Assembly: GCA_017405085.1 (NCBI GenBank) | Contig: JAFRBB010000017.1 | Location: 1 to 41,417, forward strand | Reading direction: 5' to 3' | DNA length: 41,417 bases | From: Eubacteriaceae bacterium | GTDB taxonomy: Bacteria > Bacillota > Clostridia > Eubacteriales > Eubacteriaceae | Shown: in pieces, positions 34,868 to 41,417 of the stretch | Position numbering within the stretch: position 1 is the stretch's first letter | Layout: every line of letters starts with the position of its first letter | Position numbers and translations under genes: made by a program | The notes under the pieces: model-generated | Told to the model about the DNA's origin: nothing | Database searches by the model: none | What the model saw: the letters and a program-made list of their open reading frames with translations, nothing else

Positions 34868-34980
34868 ATGAAGGATTGTAAAGAAAACCATGCGGCCCCC
34901 GCTCGGGCGCCGTCTATCATTATCATATGACGTGTCCCCGGCCCATCGCCGGCGCGGACACCTTTTGGAAGGATTCACCC

Positions 34981-36240
34981 ATGGAAAAGCTAAAAATCGA
35001 AGGAGGCCATCCCTTAAACGGCACGGTGCGCATCACCGGCGCCAAAAACGCCGTCTTGGGCCTCATTCCCGCCGCCATTCTCTGCGGCTGCGTCAACACC
35101 CTTGACAACGTGCCCGACATCGACGACGTCGACCAAATCGTCTCGATTCTTGAATCGCTGGGAGCCGGCATCTCCCGGAAAGACGACGTCCTCGTCATTG
35201 ACACCCGCGATCAAATTTCCTACGATTGCTCGCCCTATGAGGAAGAAATCGGCGCCATGCGCGCGTCCTACTATCTGCTCGGGGCGCTCCTCGGCCGCTA
35301 TCACAAAGCCGTCGTGCCGCTGCCCGGGGGCTGCGCCATCGGCGACAGACCCATCGACCAGCACATCAAGGGCTTTGAGGCCCTGGGCGCCAAAGTCGCC
35401 ATCCGCCACGGCCATGTGATGATGGAGGCGGAGGAACTGGTCGGCACCGACATCTATCTCGACGTGGTCAGCGTCGGCGCGACCATCAACATCATGCTGG
35501 CCGCGGTGCTGGCCAAGGGCATCACCACCATCGAAAACGTGGCCAAAGAGCCCCACATTGTGGACGTGGCCAATTTTCTCAACTTAATGGGCGCCAAAAT
35601 CAAAGGCGCCGGCACCGACACGATCCGCATCAAAGGGGTCGATCACCTGCACGGCTGCGAGTACTCCGTGGTGCCGGACCAGATTACCGCCGGGACCTAC
35701 ATGATGGCCGCCGCGGCCACCGGCGGCAATGTGCTGATCAAAAACGTGATCCCCCGGCACATGGACGCCGTGTCCGCCAAGCTCAAAGAAATGGGCGCCG
35801 TCATCACCTCCGAGGGAGATGGCCTGCGGGTCATCGGCCCCGAACGCCTGAAATGCTGCCGGGTCAAGACCCTTCCTTATCCGGGCTTTCCCACGGATTT
35901 GCAGCAGCCCATGGCCGTGCTGATGACCGTCGCCGACGGCAACAGCATCATCAACGAGAGCATTTTCGAAAGCCGTTTTAAATATGTGGATCAGCTGCGC
36001 AAAATGGGCGCCGACATCACGATCAACGGCCGGGTCGCCAGCATTGTGGGCGTGGACAAACTCTCCGCCACCCGCATCGCCGCCACGGACCTTCGCGCCG
36101 GCGCCGCCATGGTGGTCGCCGGACTCATCGCCGACGGCACCACCACCGTCAGCAACGTGCATTACATTGACCGCGGCTATGAAAATCTGGAAGCCAACCT
36201 CAGAAACTTGGGCGCCAAAATCGAGCGCGTGGACGTGTAA
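34981..36240 (+). CDS. murA: UDP-N-acetylglucosamine 1-carboxyvinyltransferase
   Basis: 419 residues, the EPSP-synthase-fold enzyme of the first committed step of peptidoglycan synthesis (UDP-GlcNAc plus phosphoenolpyruvate). K22-N23 in TGAKNAVL and the catalytic cysteine C118 in LPGGCAIGDRPIDQH are present. The cysteine is the one fosfomycin alkylates, so the enzyme is expected to be sensitive. The C-terminal ATDLRAGAAMVVAGLIADG is typical. GGAAGGA precedes the ATG at 34981; an opening at 34927 adds 18 residues without a ribosome site. Single gene on the plus strand, divergent from the dnaI operon. Confidence 0.96.
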   Translation: MEKLKIEGGHPLNGTVRITGAKNAVLGLIPAAILCGCVNTLDNVPDIDDVDQIVSILESLGAGISRKDDVLVIDTRDQISYDCSPYEEEIGAMRASYYLLGALLGRYHKAVVPLPGGCAIGDRPIDQHIKGFEALGAKVAIRHGHVMMEAEELVGTDIYLDVVSVGATINIMLAAVLAKGITTIENVAKEPHIVDVANFLNLMGAKIKGAGTDTIRIKGVDHLHGCEYSVVPDQITAGTYMMAAAATGGNVLIKNVIPRHMDAVSAKLKEMGAVITSEGDGLRVIGPERLKCCRVKTLPYPGFPTDLQQPMAVLMTVADGNSIINESIFESRFKYVDQLRKMGADITINGRVASIVGVDKLSATRIAATDLRAGAAMVVAGLIADGTTTVSNVHYIDRGYENLEANLRNLGAKIERVDV

Positions 36241-36316
36241 CGGGGTTGGCCGGTTGACGGTTTCGTTCGCGCGGGACGGTTTCGCCTTCGCGAAAAAGAT
36301 GACGGATATGGGAGCT

Positions 36317-36485
36317 GAGCGATAAGCAACGAATGGCTTCGTGCTTTGCACTCTCGCCATTCTACGTCCATTCGCACGCCGAACTATCGTTCTATGTGCT
36401 CATTTCCGTTGCCTTGTCAAATGGCCGTATGCTTTGACGAACAAGTTTGCCAAGCATACGGCCGCTTGACAAGAGCTTATCGCTC
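36317..36485 (-). ncRNA. Structured ~169-nt element, copy A (unknown family)
   Basis: Bounded by an 11-base terminal inverted repeat (GAGCGATAAGC/GCTTATCGCTC). On the minus strand it folds as a long hairpin arm (CTTGTCAA/TTGACAAG, then GGCCGTATGC/GCATACGGCC). An unpaired core CAACGGAAATGAGCACATAG follows, then a small hairpin GAAC-gata-GTTC inside GCAC/GTGC, and a hairpin GAATGGC/GCCATTC with inner GTGC/GCAC. A second copy at 38906-39069 keeps the core but changes many paired bases together. It lies downstream of murA in opposite orientation. I do not recognise it; RNA or a mobile palindromic element are both possible. Confidence 0.6.
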
Positions 36486-36550
36486 ATAATGAATAATTAA
36501 TAATGAATAATGAATAATTGTGGTGGAAACTCAGGCGGGGCCTGAGTTTC
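36484..36550 (+). repeat. Dispersed repeat: AT-rich TNATGAA run joined to a GAAACTC hairpin
   Basis: ATAATGAATAATTAATAATG and similar iterations are followed by GTGGTGGAAACTC and an 11-base-pair hairpin GAAACTCAGGC-ggg-GCCTGAGTTTC (36526-36550). It is the same composite as 11767-11828 (opposite strand), with the hairpin stem differing by paired changes. It abuts the end of structured element A. Confidence 0.7.
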
Positions 36551-36600
36551 TGACTTTAGAAGAGGGTGATGAGAGCGCACCATCTCCCCAACCTTTATCC

Positions 36601-36633
36601 AGCCTTAAAGCGATTCTCCCTTAAGGCTATTTT
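36601..36633 (+). terminator. Terminator-like hairpin ahead of the walJ-like gene
   Basis: AGCCTTAA (36601-36608) pairs with TTAAGGCT (36621-36628), followed by ATTTTT. It could stop transcription from murA, or act in the leader of the next gene. Confidence 0.5.
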
Positions 36634-36672
36634 TAAGTCTGGGGATATACCATACCATCAACAGGAGACCAT

Positions 36673-37461
36673 ATGAAATTTTGCAGTCTAGCAAGCGGCA
36701 GTTCCGGAAACTGCCTGGTGGCCTCGGCCGGACACACCACCGTGCTCATCGACGCGGGCTTAAGCGGCATCCGGGTTCAGCGGGCCTTGGCCGACGCGGA
36801 CATCGATCCCGCCAAGCTCTCGGCCATTTTGGTGACCCACGAGCACCGGGACCACATTCACGGGGTCGGGGTGCTGGCCCGGCGGTTTAAACTGCCGGTC
36901 TACGCCAACGCCGGTACCTGGCAGGCCATGGCGCCCGACTTGGGAAAGCTGGCCGATCATCAAAAGCGGGTGTTTGTCACCGGACAGGCCTTTGACATCG
37001 GCGACATGGAAATCGACAGTTTTGCCACTTCCCACGACGCCGCGGAGCCCGTGGGCTTTACCTTGACCGATGGTCAATCGGCCATGGGCATCGCCACCGA
37101 CACGGGCACGCCGACCTCTGCCATGATGCGGGCCCTTTCGGGCAAGGCGCTCGTGGTGCTGGAGTCCAATCACGATGTGGACATGCTCCAGACGGGGCCT
37201 TATCCCTATCCCCTCAAGCGGCGCATCGCCGGGGATCTGGGACATTTGTCCAACAAAACCGCGGGCAGCGTCGCGGCGGACCTGGTGGCCCATGGCACGA
37301 CGCGGCTGATTTTGGCCCATTTGAGCCATGAAAACAACTTTCCGGAGCTGGCGTACAACACCGCCAAAGGGGCCCTTCGCGAGGAGGGCATCACCGTCGG
37401 ACGGGACACGCGGCTGGCCGTGGCGCCCCGGTCGACCCGCACCGAGCTCTGCAATTTTTGA
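36673..37461 (+). CDS. walJ: WalJ/YycJ-like metallo-beta-lactamase-fold hydrolase
   Basis: 262 residues. The opening CSLASGSSGNC and the metal motif THEHRDH (55-61), with later DTG and HLSHENN segments, are the pattern of the YycJ/WalJ exonuclease-like family linked in Bacillus to the WalRK cell-wall regulon and to coordination of division and DNA replication. ACAGGAGACC precedes the ATG. It is 50 bases ahead of htrA, the order seen in Bacillus (yycJ-htrC), but the WalRK two-component genes are not in this window. Confidence 0.88.
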   Translation: MKFCSLASGSSGNCLVASAGHTTVLIDAGLSGIRVQRALADADIDPAKLSAILVTHEHRDHIHGVGVLARRFKLPVYANAGTWQAMAPDLGKLADHQKRVFVTGQAFDIGDMEIDSFATSHDAAEPVGFTLTDGQSAMGIATDTGTPTSAMMRALSGKALVVLESNHDVDMLQTGPYPYPLKRRIAGDLGHLSNKTAGSVAADLVAHGTTRLILAHLSHENNFPELAYNTAKGALREEGITVGRDTRLAVAPRSTRTELCNF

Positions 37462-37511
37462 TATTATCCTCCCGATTGACACAATTTTTTAAAGTGATAA
37501 GAGGTGATACC

Positions 37512-38708
37512 ATGAACAATGATAACGGCACGTTTCAATCCCCCAAAAAAGGCGGTAATTCCGCCATTATGTCCTCGGTGATCGGCGCGGTCATCGGCGG
37601 CGTCGTGGTGGCGGCGATCATTTTGGGCACGCTGTATTTTACGGGAACGCTCTCGGGCAAAGGCACCACCCAGACCGTCGGCGGTCAAAAGGTCATCGTC
37701 AACAACTCCGAGGCCTCCACCGCCGTGGAAGCCGTGGCCCAGGTGATTCCCGACTCGGTGGTCGGCATCACCACCGATGTGTCCCAGCAGACGGTCTACG
37801 GCACCGCCGAAGGCACGGCCATGGGCTCGGGCTTCATTGTGACCACCGACGGTTACATCGTCACCAACGCCCATGTGATTGAAGGCTCCACCGGGGACAT
37901 CAAAGTACAAACCAATGATGAAAAGACCCACACGGCCAAGGTGATTTATGAAGACACCGCCATTGACCTGGCAGTCATCAAAATTGACGCCAGCGGCCTG
38001 TCCGCCGTGAGCTTGGGCGATTCGGATCAGGTGAAAGTGGGGCAGACGGCCATCGCCGTGGGCAACCCCTTGAGCCTCGAATATCAGCGCACGGTCACCT
38101 CGGGCATTGTCTCGGCCCTTAACCGGACTTTGGTCAGCGACAATCAGATCGTGGCGGAAAATTTGATTCAGACCGACGCCACCATCAATTCGGGCAACAG
38201 CGGCGGCCCCCTGGTCAACGCCAACGGCGAGATCATCGGCATCAACACCTATAAGGCGTCCCAGGGTGAGGGCATCGGCTTTGCCATCCCCATCAACATC
38301 GCCAAGCCGATCATCAACAAGATTGTCTCCTCGGGCAAGTTTAATCCCATCGTCATCGGCGTCAGCGGTTATGACGCGGAGCAGGCCTATTATCTGTCCG
38401 GCTCGGAAGTGAACTTCGACAATGGCATTTATATCGCCAGTGTGACAAATGGCGGTCCCGCGGCGTCGGCCGGGCTTCAAAAGGGCGACATCATCACAGC
38501 CATCAATAACACGGAAGTCAACACCATGCTGCAGATGAAGACCGTGCTCTACGGCCTCAATTCCGGCGATGAAATCACCCTGACCTATCAGCGCGGCGGC
38601 AAAGAGGCTTCCACCAAAGTGAAGGTGACGGAAGGCAGCGCGAACAGCAACAGCAGTAACAATGACAATAACAACAATTACGGCAATTTATTCCCCTTCG
38701 GCCGATAA
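37512..38708 (+). CDS. htrA: HtrA/DegP-family serine protease
   Basis: 398 residues. A single N-terminal membrane helix (about 18-45, rich in Ile/Val/Gly) anchors an extracytoplasmic trypsin-like domain with catalytic triad H121 (TNAHVIEG), D152 (AIDLAVIK) and S230 (NSGNSGGPL). It is followed by one PDZ domain (about 290-375) and a Ser/Asn-rich tail. It degrades misfolded proteins at the envelope. GAGGTGATACC before the ATG at 37512 decides the start over one at 37458. It is in the same transcript as the walJ-like gene and is followed by a 39-residue membrane peptide. Confidence 0.95.
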   Translation: MNNDNGTFQSPKKGGNSAIMSSVIGAVIGGVVVAAIILGTLYFTGTLSGKGTTQTVGGQKVIVNNSEASTAVEAVAQVIPDSVVGITTDVSQQTVYGTAEGTAMGSGFIVTTDGYIVTNAHVIEGSTGDIKVQTNDEKTHTAKVIYEDTAIDLAVIKIDASGLSAVSLGDSDQVKVGQTAIAVGNPLSLEYQRTVTSGIVSALNRTLVSDNQIVAENLIQTDATINSGNSGGPLVNANGEIIGINTYKASQGEGIGFAIPINIAKPIINKIVSSGKFNPIVIGVSGYDAEQAYYLSGSEVNFDNGIYIASVTNGGPAASAGLQKGDIITAINNTEVNTMLQMKTVLYGLNSGDEITLTYQRGGKEASTKVKVTEGSANSNSSNNDNNNNYGNLFPFGR

Positions 38709-38756
38709 AAGCCGAAACGGGTTTTCCCGCAATCTCATGCCAAGGAGGTGAAGGCG

Positions 38757-38876
38757 ATGTTAACCAAATCTTTCGGTCTGGGCTTGTTGGTTTCGGCGGG
38801 CGCCGTGCTGCTCGGCTACGCGGCCTATCGCTATTTTGACAACAAGCTAAAATCCGACGAACCCATTTGGTCTTGA
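38757..38876 (+). CDS. Small membrane protein (39 residues)
   Basis: A short frame with an excellent ribosome site, AAGGAGGTGA, before the ATG and a terminator directly behind the stop codon. Residues about 6-24 (FGLGLLVSAGAVLLGYAAY) form one membrane helix, and the end (RYFDNKLKSDEPIWS) is soluble. It lies 48 bases after htrA and is probably part of that operon. No family recognised. Confidence 0.7.
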   Translation: MLTKSFGLGLLVSAGAVLLGYAAYRYFDNKLKSDEPIWS

Positions 38877-38883
38877 TTTTAAC

Positions 38884-38904
38884 GGCCCCGAAAGGGGTCT
38901 TTTT
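38884..38904 (+). terminator. Terminator of the walJ-htrA operon
   Basis: GGCCCC-gaaa-GGGGTC stem with one G-U pair followed by five T, seven bases past the small membrane protein. Structured element B begins at the very next bases. Confidence 0.88.
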
Positions 38905-38905
38905 G

Positions 38906-39069
38906 CGCGATAAGCCCTTGACAAACGGTTGTATGCGCTTTGTGCTTGCACAAAAGTGCATACAACGATTGGGCAAGGCCAACGGACATGAGCACATAGC
39001 GCGATAGCGCGGGTGCGAATGGCCGCCGAACCCGGGAGTGTGAAACACGGAGGGTTCGGGCTTATCGCG
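38906..39069 (+). ncRNA. Structured ~164-nt element, copy B (unknown family)
   Basis: Closing helix CGCGATAAGC (38906-38915) with GCTTATCGCG (39060-39069). Arm 1 is CCTTG/CAAGG, then GTTGTATGC (38928-38936) with GCATACAAC (38958-38966). The unpaired core includes AACGGACATGAGCACATAG. Arm 2 is GCAC/GTGC with inner GCGC-gata-GCGC (38999-39010). Arm 3 is GAACCC (39028-39033) with GGGTTC (39052-39057) and inner GTGT/ACAC. Compared with copy A, paired positions change together in the closing helix, arm 1, arm 2 and arm 3. It sits directly after the htrA-operon terminator on the same strand. Confidence 0.6.
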
Positions 39070-39240
39070 GCGAAACCCGCGAGATCCGCGATGAGCCCTC
39101 TCATCAGGACAGACGGACATCCAGCAAGGCTTATCGCCAAACTTACGATCGTCAACGCATACGGACATCCAGCAAGGCCAACGGACATGAGCGTAGCGGG
39201 TGGAGATGATTGTGAGCGTAGCGAGCAATCTGACCAAAAT
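39070..39240 (+). repeat. Degenerate fragments of the structured element
   Basis: No gene is seen between the small membrane protein and the transposase. 39172-39192 repeats 21 bases of the core of element B (38973-38993) exactly, then diverges. ACGGACATCCAGCAAGGC occurs at about 39112 and 39161, and GGCTTATCGCC at 39128-39138. This looks like one or more decayed or rearranged copies. Confidence 0.5.
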
Positions 39241-39324
39241 CATTGATGTTTCATCAGGGAGCCTGCTAATAAAAAGTCAAGGGGAAATTGAAAAAATTAA
39301 AACGAAATTTTGGGCATGACAAAT

Positions 39325-39346
39325 AGACCGCCCGCAAAGCCGGTCT
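39325..39346 (-). terminator. Hairpin downstream of the IS110 recombinase
   Basis: AGACCG (39325-39330)/CGGTCT (39341-39346) with a GC-rich ten-base loop, followed on the minus strand by ATTTGTC. A weak terminator or part of the right end of the IS. Confidence 0.45.
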
Positions 39347-39374
39347 TCGAAAAGATTATCTTTAATTCAATGAA

Positions 39375-40589
39375 TCAGCTTTCGATTTCCGGATGTTCTC
39401 GATAATACTCCTTGACCTTGCCGTAATAGATGCGAAGGAACTTATTGGCTCCGGCAGTCATATAAACACGATATGGCTTCCCCTCGGAACGTTTCTTGTC
39501 CATGAAGCGGTAGACAGGATCATCAGGTTTTAACTGCAAAAGAGCCTTCATGATAAGAAAAAGTGTCTTCCTGAGCCTAGGCTGTCCGCATTTAGAGGCT
39601 CGATTACTCTTACTTTTAAAATTACCGGATTGATTGACGCCGGGGTCAACACCTGCGTAGGCGGTAAGGGCTTCACGGTGATTAAATCGTGAAATATCCC
39701 CGATTTCGGCAATCAGTTGCGGTCCAAAAGTAGGGCCAACGCCTTTCATGGACATCACGATGTTGTATTCCGGCAAAGTGGAAGCAAGCCTGTTCATTTC
39801 CTGACGAGTGGTCTCCACGTTGGTAGAAATGACATTAAGCTGATTGATGCACATACGGATCATATCTTTGTATTGCTTCTCTTTTGGGAAAACCGGGACA
39901 AGCTCTTTTGAATCATTGAAAAGTTTAATAGCCTTAGCGGGTTGAAAGTTATACCCATGCTTCTTACAAAAAGAACGGTAACGTGTTGTAAAACGAGATT
40001 GACCGAGATTCCGAACGCAATCGACATGCCAAAAAGCATAAGCGTAATCAACCCATTTATCGCTTCCGTCGTCGCGTGGAGATGAGTCAAAGAGCTCATT
40101 CACACCCGGATAAGTCATATCCAGAAGTGAAATGAGGTTGGTTTTCGCAGCGATTTTCTGCTTGGTAAAAAAATCCATCTGCGCGTTCAGAGTTTTTAAT
40201 TGTGCGCGAGTCGTATCCATACTGGAATACTGACGTAACTGAGCCCAATTGTCAAGCGTAAATCGGGCAATCTTCTTGGAATCGGCAGAATCGGATTTAA
40301 CCTTGCGGATGGTGTTGTTGCCGAAGTTCTTGATCAGGCGTGGGTTGACTGCGCTGACATAGATACCAGCGTCAGACAGATAACGGAGAATCGGTTCATG
40401 GTATCTGCCGGTGCACTCCATCACCACCTTAGTCTTGCCATTTAAGGACAGAATGTAATCCGCGAGGCTTTTGAGCTCACTGGAAGAATGCGAAACATCG
40501 AAGGGTTTTCCAACAAAAGTGCCTTCCGATTGCAGAACCGCTACGGTGCTTTTACCTTTTGAAACATCAATGCCGACTGCGTTATACAT
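39375..40589 (-). CDS. IS110-family recombinase (transposase)
   Basis: 404 residues, apparently intact. The N-terminal RuvC-like DEDD domain shows D8 (GIDVSKGKS), E58 (VMECTGRY), D100 and D103 (KSDSADSKKIA). The C-terminal Transposase_20 domain has MKGVGPTFGPQLIAEIGD, AYAGVDPGVNQSG and the serine-rich KSKSNRASKCG, where IS110 enzymes carry their catalytic serine. TGGAGGTACAATC before the ATG at 40589 sets the start over one at 40637. IS110 enzymes use a bridge RNA made from the non-coding end to choose donor and target, which fits the long upstream gap. Confidence 0.92.
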   Translation of the reverse strand: MYNAVGIDVSKGKSTVAVLQSEGTFVGKPFDVSHSSSELKSLADYILSLNGKTKVVMECTGRYHEPILRYLSDAGIYVSAVNPRLIKNFGNNTIRKVKSDSADSKKIARFTLDNWAQLRQYSSMDTTRAQLKTLNAQMDFFTKQKIAAKTNLISLLDMTYPGVNELFDSSPRDDGSDKWVDYAYAFWHVDCVRNLGQSRFTTRYRSFCKKHGYNFQPAKAIKLFNDSKELVPVFPKEKQYKDMIRMCINQLNVISTNVETTRQEMNRLASTLPEYNIVMSMKGVGPTFGPQLIAEIGDISRFNHREALTAYAGVDPGVNQSGNFKSKSNRASKCGQPRLRKTLFLIMKALLQLKPDDPVYRFMDKKRSEGKPYRVYMTAGANKFLRIYYGKVKEYYREHPEIES

Positions 40590-40860
40590 GATTGTACCTC
40601 CAAGAAAAATGAATTGCATAGGCCGGCGGCTATCCATTGCTTATTCAATCTCCTGGGGTATCATACGGACGTGCACGAGGCAATCCAACCTGCATAAATC
40701 GAACGGCTGCGAATGGAGGGCCAGCTGACAGGCTCCCCGACGGACGCCTATGGGTCCAAGGAAACTGACGTCATACCAATGCCCTTCTATTCTAACAGCT
40801 TTAGCAATGGACCGGTTAGTCCTTTCCGGCTGAAAGGGTTCTAACCACCACAAATATATT
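40590..40860 (-). other. IS110 non-coding end, likely bridge RNA region
   Basis: About 270 bases without a gene upstream of the recombinase start, GC-richer than the recombinase gene and with several potential stems (for example AACCCTTTCAGCCGGAAAGG at the outer end, minus strand, and GTCCGTCGGGGAGCC). In IS110-group elements this 5' non-coding end encodes the bridge RNA; position is the only evidence here, and I did not identify its target- and donor-binding loops. Confidence 0.5.
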
Positions 40861-40865
40861 ATAGG

Positions 40866-41417
40866 AGGAAGCCTTTTTGTGCTTTGTGAGGTTTTCGCAA
40901 GAGAACCCCTCAGTCGCCTATAAAGCAGAGCTTTTCGCTATCCTTATTTGGGGCAGTTTTCTCGCTTTGCTCGAAAACATCTCCGCCCGCTTCGCTCGAT
41001 AAGTTCGCATGAGCCAAATCTTAGATTTGGATGCTCACTTACGCTCGGAACGGCTGTTCCTCGCGGGGACGCCGCTTGTTTCCTATGGCTTCTCGGTAGG
41101 GTTTCGCTTGTCTTTTTTGGGCAGTTTTCTCGCTTTGCTCGAAAACATCTCCGCTCGCTTCGCTCGATAAGTTCGCATGAGCCAAATCTTAGATTTGGAT
41201 GCTCACTTACGCTCGGAACGGCTGTTCCTCGCTCATGCGCCGCTCGTCATGCTCGCGGCTTACCCCTTGATAAGGGGAGGTGGCTCGCGAAGCGAGACGT
41301 AACTGACGTCCCAAGAACACGAGCAAAAGCGAGTGTGAGAAGGTGAATTTCGGCAAAGCCGAAAGAGAGGCCGGCCTGGGCCGTTGGCTGACGGAAGCTA
41401 TCCGTAGCGTAGCGGAG
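40866..41417. repeat. Hairpin-repeat cluster at the right edge
   Basis: No gene is supported. 40866-40947 resembles the 9133-9230 chain (GGAAGCCTTTTTGT, GAGAACCCCTCAGTCGCC). Two ~168-bp units of the 18301-19001 array begin at 40953 and 41121. From 41264 the sequence rejoins the 9133-9362 family (CCCCTT-gat-AAGGGG, CTCGC-gaa-GCGAG, then the segment ending GCGTAGCGGAG at the window end). The element continues beyond the window. Confidence 0.78.

What the first reader, a model, noticed from the sequence alone, without database searches (positions are those of the whole stretch)
36317..39069. Unrecognised ~165-nt structured element in two copies with covariation in at least four helices
Copy A (36317-36485, minus strand) and copy B (38906-39069, plus strand) share an unpaired core (AACGGA.ATGAGCACATAG and GTGCGAATGG) and the closing helix GCGATAAGC/GCTTATCGC. 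Their other stems differ by paired substitutions: GGCCGTATGC/GCATACGGCC vs GTTGTATGC/GCATACAAC; GAAC/GTTC vs GCGC/GCGC around the same GATA loop; GAATGGC/GCCATTC vs GAACCC/GGGTTC; GTGC/GCAC vs GTGT/ACAC. Paired changes with conserved loops are the mark of a functional RNA or an active single-stranded DNA fold. I cannot match it to a known riboswitch, ribozyme or other RNA family.
Basis: partly seen in the sequence, partly recalled or inferred. Interest (0 to 1): 0.9.

Follow-up and report, generated by a model that had tools for sequence, protein, structure and literature searches.

The report
Two copies of mobile Clostridiales-1 RNA
The two structured elements are real, but they belong to a catalogued RNA family of unknown function (Clostridiales-1); in this genome and its relatives it behaves as a high-copy insertion that often lands at the ends of genes and keeps its RNA fold after landing, which the papers found here do not report.

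Summary
In detail: two ~165-nt copies share loops while their stems differ by paired changes. The claim that it is unrecognised is wrong. Both copies match Rfam RF01699 Clostridiales-1 (110 and 101 bits; threshold 48), described in 2010 as a probable structured RNA without known function.

What is added here is how the family behaves in genomes. It is a dispersed repeat: 29 hits in this 2.2-Mb genome, at least 67 in another. Covariation is strong (181 doubly changed cells against 52 shuffled, 0/500), and G·T mismatches exceed A·C 55 to 14, so the fold is selected on the Rfam strand.

Insertion is shown by empty sites. Copy B follows a terminator and is absent there in the sister species. In a related genus a 178-bp insert splits two genes that overlap in close relatives. 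One genome shows inverted ends and 6-bp duplications. In other genomes 36/60 copies start at a stop codon and 38 of 42 copies inside operons are sense. Stem pairs change together at fixed sites.

Best reading: a non-autonomous mobile repeat (MITE-like, compare ERIC and NEMIS) whose RNA fold acts in transcripts. The mobilising enzyme and exact function remain unknown.

The parts
36316..36486 (-). Copy A of the Clostridiales-1 RNA element with its extended closing helix; antisense to the flanking aroA-like (34927-36240 +) and metallo-beta-lactamase-fold (36673-37461 +) genes
   Evidence: RF01699 101 bits at 36320-36482 minus; 12-bp perfect inverted ends; neighbours by Pfam
38906..39069 (+). Copy B of the Clostridiales-1 RNA element
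   Evidence: RF01699 110.4 bits, model positions 1-166 complete
38885..38905 (+). Terminator-like hairpin and T run whose end abuts copy B
   Evidence: Sequence. The sister genome G001 has a terminator at the same place but no element behind it
39070..39244 (+). Degenerate pieces of further Clostridiales-1 units in tandem behind copy B, running into another genomic repeat
   Evidence: Direct repeats 39101-39130 / 39149-39178 and 38958-38993 / 39157-39192; tandem truncated units also at other loci of this genome; 39189-39244 recurs elsewhere in the genome

Best explanation
The two elements are copies of Rfam Clostridiales-1 (RF01699). The family is a non-autonomous, high-copy mobile repeat of about 165-200 bp that carries a four-helix RNA fold. 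SHOWN: it inserts into intergenic DNA, seen as empty sites in close relatives and as 6-bp duplications with inverted ends in one genome; it amplifies and forms tandem arrays and internally deleted derivatives; its fold is maintained by paired changes, including at one fixed site in different species; and in most genomes examined it sits sense-strand inside operons with its closing helix P1 at the stop codon or just behind a terminator. INFERRED: an enzyme supplied in trans moves it as DNA (not found), and after landing it is transcribed with the upstream gene. There the fold, whose P1 helix often includes the upstream stop codon and so can be melted by the terminating ribosome, acts in cis on the mRNA (processing, stability or coupling to the next gene), as proposed for ERIC and NEMIS repeats. 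In this window copy B fits that pattern (behind a terminator, sense). Copy A is antisense to its neighbours and may simply be a tolerated insertion.
For: Identity. Copy number: 29 hits in G000, at least 67 in G343, 1-15 in the other positive genomes searched in full; 15 of 391 genomes of the class have any. Fold and strand: covariation; G.T 55 vs A.C 14 in 65 non-redundant copies, p about 7e-7, same direction in every genome. Mobility: copy B absent in sister G001 behind the orthologous terminator; 178-bp insert in G427 splitting AGATGAGC, empty in G464 at about 95% flank identity and in several others; further empty sites at other gene ends; in G343 inverted ends TGATGNNNGGGTCAAAAG 143 times against 5 control matches, and 6-bp duplications exact in 8 of 14 tailed copies (7 by script, one more read by eye), no shuffle of 20,000 reaching the observed match. 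Placement: 36/60 copies from genomes other than G000, G001 and G343 have the stop of an upstream same-strand frame within -3..+10 nt of P1, against 12/60 scattered in the mirror control; operon orientation 38 sense to 4 antisense. P1 pairing continues into host flanks, 1.87 vs 0.53 pairs, 0/2000 shuffles. At orthologous sites 142 of 215 altered P2 pairs (directed counts) are compensatory.
Against: No transposase with matching ends was found in G343, so the mobiliser is unknown. In this genome and in G343 orientation is unbiased (3:3 and 6:9), so a sense-mRNA role does not cover all copies. Clear target duplications were seen only in G343; none was evident by eye in G000. Stop codons within the element's own P1 help to produce the stop-codon coincidence. 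No transcript data were available.
Confidence: 0.7

Rival explanations
1. A trans-acting small RNA gene family, as Rfam types it (Gene; sRNA): each copy is an independently transcribed sRNA and the copies arose by gene duplication.
For: Rfam type; complete 166-position matches; fold selected on one strand; orientation-independent placement in G000 and G343.
Against: Clean insertion into operons and between overlapping genes, dozens of copies in single genomes, sense placement at stop codons and the hypervariable P2 stem do not look like a conserved sRNA gene with defined targets.
Confidence: 0.12
2. A purely selfish palindromic DNA element; pairing is kept by DNA processes (template switching between arms, or recognition of a folded single DNA strand by its transposase), not by RNA function.
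For: P2 changes wholesale in both arms at a fixed site while the rest is nearly identical; the G.T/A.C asymmetry is weaker in P2 (28:13) than in P3+P4 (27:1); inverted ends and duplications in G343.
Against: Conserved unpaired loops across distant genera and the 27:1 asymmetry in P3+P4 need selection on one strand; the sense bias in operons (38:4) is not expected of a DNA-only parasite. A single-stranded DNA fold of that same strand is not excluded.
Confidence: 0.15
3. An IS110-related element: the neighbouring IS110-type transposase (39375-40637 minus) uses or targets the repeat, or the repeat is its bridge RNA.
For: IS110-type transposase by Pfam next to copy B.
Against: The IS is single-copy in the genome while the repeat has 29 hits, and it begins about 175 nt beyond copy B, next to a different repeat.
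Confidence: 0.03

Closest known systems
Rfam RF01699 Clostridiales-1 RNA (Weinberg et al. 2010, PMC2864571)
   Same: Same family: full-length covariance-model hits at more than twice the gathering score, same helices and conserved loops, Clostridia host (the sister genome is deposited as an uncultured Eubacterium).
   Different: Rfam types it as an sRNA gene and the 2010 table lists it as probable RNA, not cis-regulatory. Mobility, copy number, placement at stop codons and in-place compensation are not described in the papers found.
ERIC / IRU / RU-1 repeats of enterobacteria (review PMC2229807)
   Same: Short, TIR-bounded, co-transcribed intergenic repeat with an RNA structure; orientation matters for its effect on the upstream mRNA.
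   Different: No sequence relation shown. ERIC is 127 bp; this has a multi-branch fold with conserved unpaired residues and a P1 that can include the upstream stop codon.
Correia/NEMIS and RUP elements (review PMC2229807)
   Same: MITE-like, high copy, inverted ends plus target duplication; RNA-level effects through RNase III proposed for NEMIS.
   Different: Different ends and sizes. Here 6-bp duplications were seen, and in one genome only.
REP/BIME palindromes
   Same: Dispersed, intercistronic, near gene ends, palindromic (from established knowledge).
   Different: Much smaller units, tied to REP-associated tyrosine transposases; no such partner was identified here.

Membership tests
Rfam RF01699 Clostridiales-1 | Covariance-model score at or above the gathering score (48) | tested here: met
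   110.4 and 101.0 bits, positions 1-166 of 166, not cut off
Rfam RF01699 Clostridiales-1 | Multi-helix fold with conserved loops kept by covariation | tested here: met
   22 of 27 pairs with changes on both sides, 0/500 shuffles
Rfam RF01699 Clostridiales-1 | Is transcribed as an RNA | not testable with these tools
   No RNA data; only the G.T over A.C excess argues for it
MITE (miniature inverted-repeat transposable element) | Terminal inverted repeats | tested here: met
   12-bp perfect ends for both window copies; about 18-bp imperfect ends in G343
MITE (miniature inverted-repeat transposable element) | Target-site duplication | tested here: inconclusive
   Met in G343 (6 bp, 8/14 exact); a 2-nt AT overlap at one site in G427; none seen by eye for copies of this genome
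MITE (miniature inverted-repeat transposable element) | Presence/absence at orthologous sites | tested here: met
   Copy B absent in G001; several sites in another genus
MITE (miniature inverted-repeat transposable element) | Autonomous element with a transposase and the same ends | tested here: inconclusive
   No pair of matching ends at IS-like spacing among the listed places of G343; not searched in all genomes
IS110 bridge RNA | Lies within the IS end next to the transposase gene and recurs with it | tested here: not met
   Copy B lies outside the IS; IS single-copy while the repeat has 29 hits

The most novel reading that the evidence does not exclude
Clostridiales-1 is a mobile RNA that seeks out the 3' ends of genes: its closing helix pairs with the target (stop codon or terminator edge), so the nucleic acid itself directs where it lands and then becomes part of the host mRNA.
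Probability: 0.1. Interest if true: 0.85.

Novelty: new member of a known kind. Interest (0 to 1): 0.47.

Why it matters
An RNA family listed since 2010 without a function gets a testable biology: it is a mobile intercistronic repeat whose fold is kept by selection after insertion, often with the host gene's stop codon inside its closing helix. That turns an orphan sRNA into a question about how mobile elements rewire operons in gut and rumen Clostridia, and it predicts effects on neighbouring mRNAs that can be measured.

Tried and rejected
Other Rfam families for copy B: nothing but chance matches. Phage, plasmid and viral-contig searches: no match. A named pattern scan of genome contigs returned only the sister MAG RUG12931, because the pattern was too narrow. 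IS110 as partner: rejected. Search for an autonomous transposon with the G343 ends: only short internally deleted derivatives and contig ends broken inside copies. The stop codon as a precise integration target: weakened, because the element's own P1 carries stops in two of three frames, and at a trpG-like gene the stop lies in the element while the relative's gene runs six codons further. Insertion into a pre-existing hairpin: possible at one groEL end, where the relative keeps ATGATGTA...TACATCAT without the element, but a deletion scar would look the same. A first structure count on the MAFFT alignment was discarded for P1 and P2, which were misaligned.

Full report
CHECK OF THE OBSERVATION. 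Both copies are present at the stated places, and all quoted stems and loops are there. Perfect 12-bp inverted ends bound each copy. On an alignment of 38 copies from eight genomes the structure drawn from copy B (helices P3, P3a and P4, where the alignment is reliable) has 87.3% paired cells and 181 doubly changed cells against 52 (sd 6) in shuffles, 0 of 500; slid versions fall to 24-45% paired.

IDENTITY. Rfam 15 identifies both copies as RF01699 Clostridiales-1, full length, 110.4 and 101.0 bits against a gathering score of 48. A permissive scan of copy B shows no other family beyond chance matches. The family comes from Weinberg et al. 2010, whose table marks it as a probable RNA, not cis-regulatory, from Clostridiales and human gut (PMC2864571). 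Full-text searches of the held library found no paper on its function.

IT IS A HIGH-COPY REPEAT. The window's genome (2.2 Mb) holds 29 hits, 20 above threshold, some in tandem arrays of truncated units that lack the 5' arm of P2. Copy B is itself followed by degenerate pieces of further units (39070-39244). Within the class 15 of 391 sampled genomes have hits. Among those searched in full the count runs from 1 to at least 67 in a 3.3-Mb genome, G343, where further copies sit broken at contig ends. No phage or plasmid record matched; one exact-pattern scan of viral contigs found none.

ONE STRAND IS SELECTED. Stems were found with a scoring scheme that treats all mismatches alike. In 65 non-redundant copies, single mismatches flanked by Watson-Crick pairs were G.T 55 times and A.C 14 times (p about 7e-7), and 27 to 1 in P3 plus P4. 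The excess has the same direction in every genome. This is expected if the Rfam strand folds as RNA; a folded single DNA strand of the same polarity is not excluded. The bias is weaker in the hypervariable P2 (28:13).

IT INSERTS. For copy B, the sister genome G001 (the deposited rumen MAG RUG12931, 'uncultured Eubacterium', matched by contig number and length) has the same small gene and a terminator at the same place, but no element behind it. Copy B was therefore gained in G000 or lost in G001, directly behind a terminator. The copy A site cannot be judged fully: in G001 the assembly breaks between the two genes, with sense tandem units on one side and the end of an antisense copy on the other. 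In genus g50 (same class) a 178-bp insert in G427 separates two genes that overlap by ATGA in G464 (about 95% identical flanks) and in several other species, with a 2-nt AT overlap; the insert brings a new stop codon and the sequence in front of the next start codon. Related species hold the same site filled, or with internally deleted remnants. Further empty and filled sites were read at pheS-, rnfA-, trpG- and rplL-like gene ends and elsewhere (gene names inferred from the translated ends, not from a database). In G343 the element has a 3' tail that gives ~18-bp inverted ends (TGATGNNNGGGTCAAAAG, 143 matches against 5 for the reversed control) and 6-bp duplications. These are exact in 8 of 14 tailed copies by eye; the script mis-parsed one and counted 7, and no shuffle of 20,000 reached even that.

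WHERE IT SITS. In 60 copies from genomes other than G000, G001 and G343, an upstream same-strand open frame of at least 240 nt ends within -3 to +10 nt of P1 in 36; the mirror-image control gives 12, scattered. Six more follow a hairpin and T run. With both neighbours called, 38 copies are sense and 4 antisense inside operons. G343 (6:9) and G000 (3:3) show no such bias. Part of the stop-codon coincidence is made by the element itself, since TGATATAG and TGAGCGATAAG carry stops in two frames; at the trpG-like site the relative's gene runs six codons further. The orientation bias is not explained that way.

SELECTION IN PLACE. P1 continues into host flanks more than by chance (1.87 against 0.53 contiguous pairs, 0 of 2000 shuffles). 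At the rplL-like site two species have TAAG|TGATATA...TATATCA|CTT and TAAT|TGATATA...TATATCA|ATTA: the flanking position changes on both sides and the pairing takes in the stop codon. Across seven sites shared by two to five species, 142 of 215 altered P2 pairs, 31 of 95 altered P3 pairs and 22 of 60 altered P4 pairs are compensatory (directed counts, so each species pair counts twice). P2 can change almost completely in both arms while the rest stays the same (pheS-like site), so a DNA-level copying of one arm onto the other may contribute there.

MECHANISM. Shown: a repeat that inserts, amplifies and decays by internal deletion, with a fold kept on one strand, in many genomes placed sense at gene ends. 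Inferred: movement by a trans-acting enzyme that was not found, and action of the transcribed fold on the mRNA that carries it. ERIC repeats are the closest functional precedent: co-transcribed, orientation-dependent, proposed to alter upstream mRNA stability through a conformational change and a ribosome-exposed cleavage site (review PMC2229807). Copy B fits this; copy A, antisense to both neighbours, need not.

VERDICT. The window finding is two members of a known RNA family. The unreported part, as far as the held literature goes, is that the family is mobile and tied to gene ends. Moderate interest; the step to a mechanism needs RNA data.

Noticed in passing
window 39245-40880 (minus); ORF 39375-40637: A single-copy IS110-type element (DEDD and Transposase_20 domains) whose ends border other genomic repeats; the ~220-nt non-coding stretch upstream of the ORF is where an IS110 bridge RNA would be expected, with no Rfam match.
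   Followed up: partly
window 40980-41045 and 41150-41215: Another high-copy repeat (GCTTCGCTCGATAAGTTCGCATG..CCAAATC..GATTTGGATGCTCACTTA) in two near-identical copies; the same repeat lies inside the P3a loop of several Clostridiales-1 copies (L014, L010, L028).
   Followed up: partly
window 36487-36560; also L002, L007, L009, L011: A third short repeat: an ATTAATGATGAATGATT-like spacer plus a GAAACTC..GGC..GCC..GAGTTTC hairpin, often joined to the 5' end of Clostridiales-1 copies in this genome.
   Followed up: no
L167 (G170 groEL 3' end) and L216 (G470): The last groEL codons (ATGATGTAA) are matched by a downstream inverted copy, with the element between them in G170 and without it in G470: either a hairpin target or a deletion scar.
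   Followed up: partly
L145, L153, L265 (pheS-like sites): The P2 stem is almost entirely replaced in both arms between species while the rest of the element is nearly identical: very fast paired turnover that point mutation alone explains poorly.
   Followed up: no
G343 contig ends, e.g. L117, L124, L128: Many contigs of G343 end inside the same stretch of the element, so its true copy number is higher than counted.
   Followed up: no
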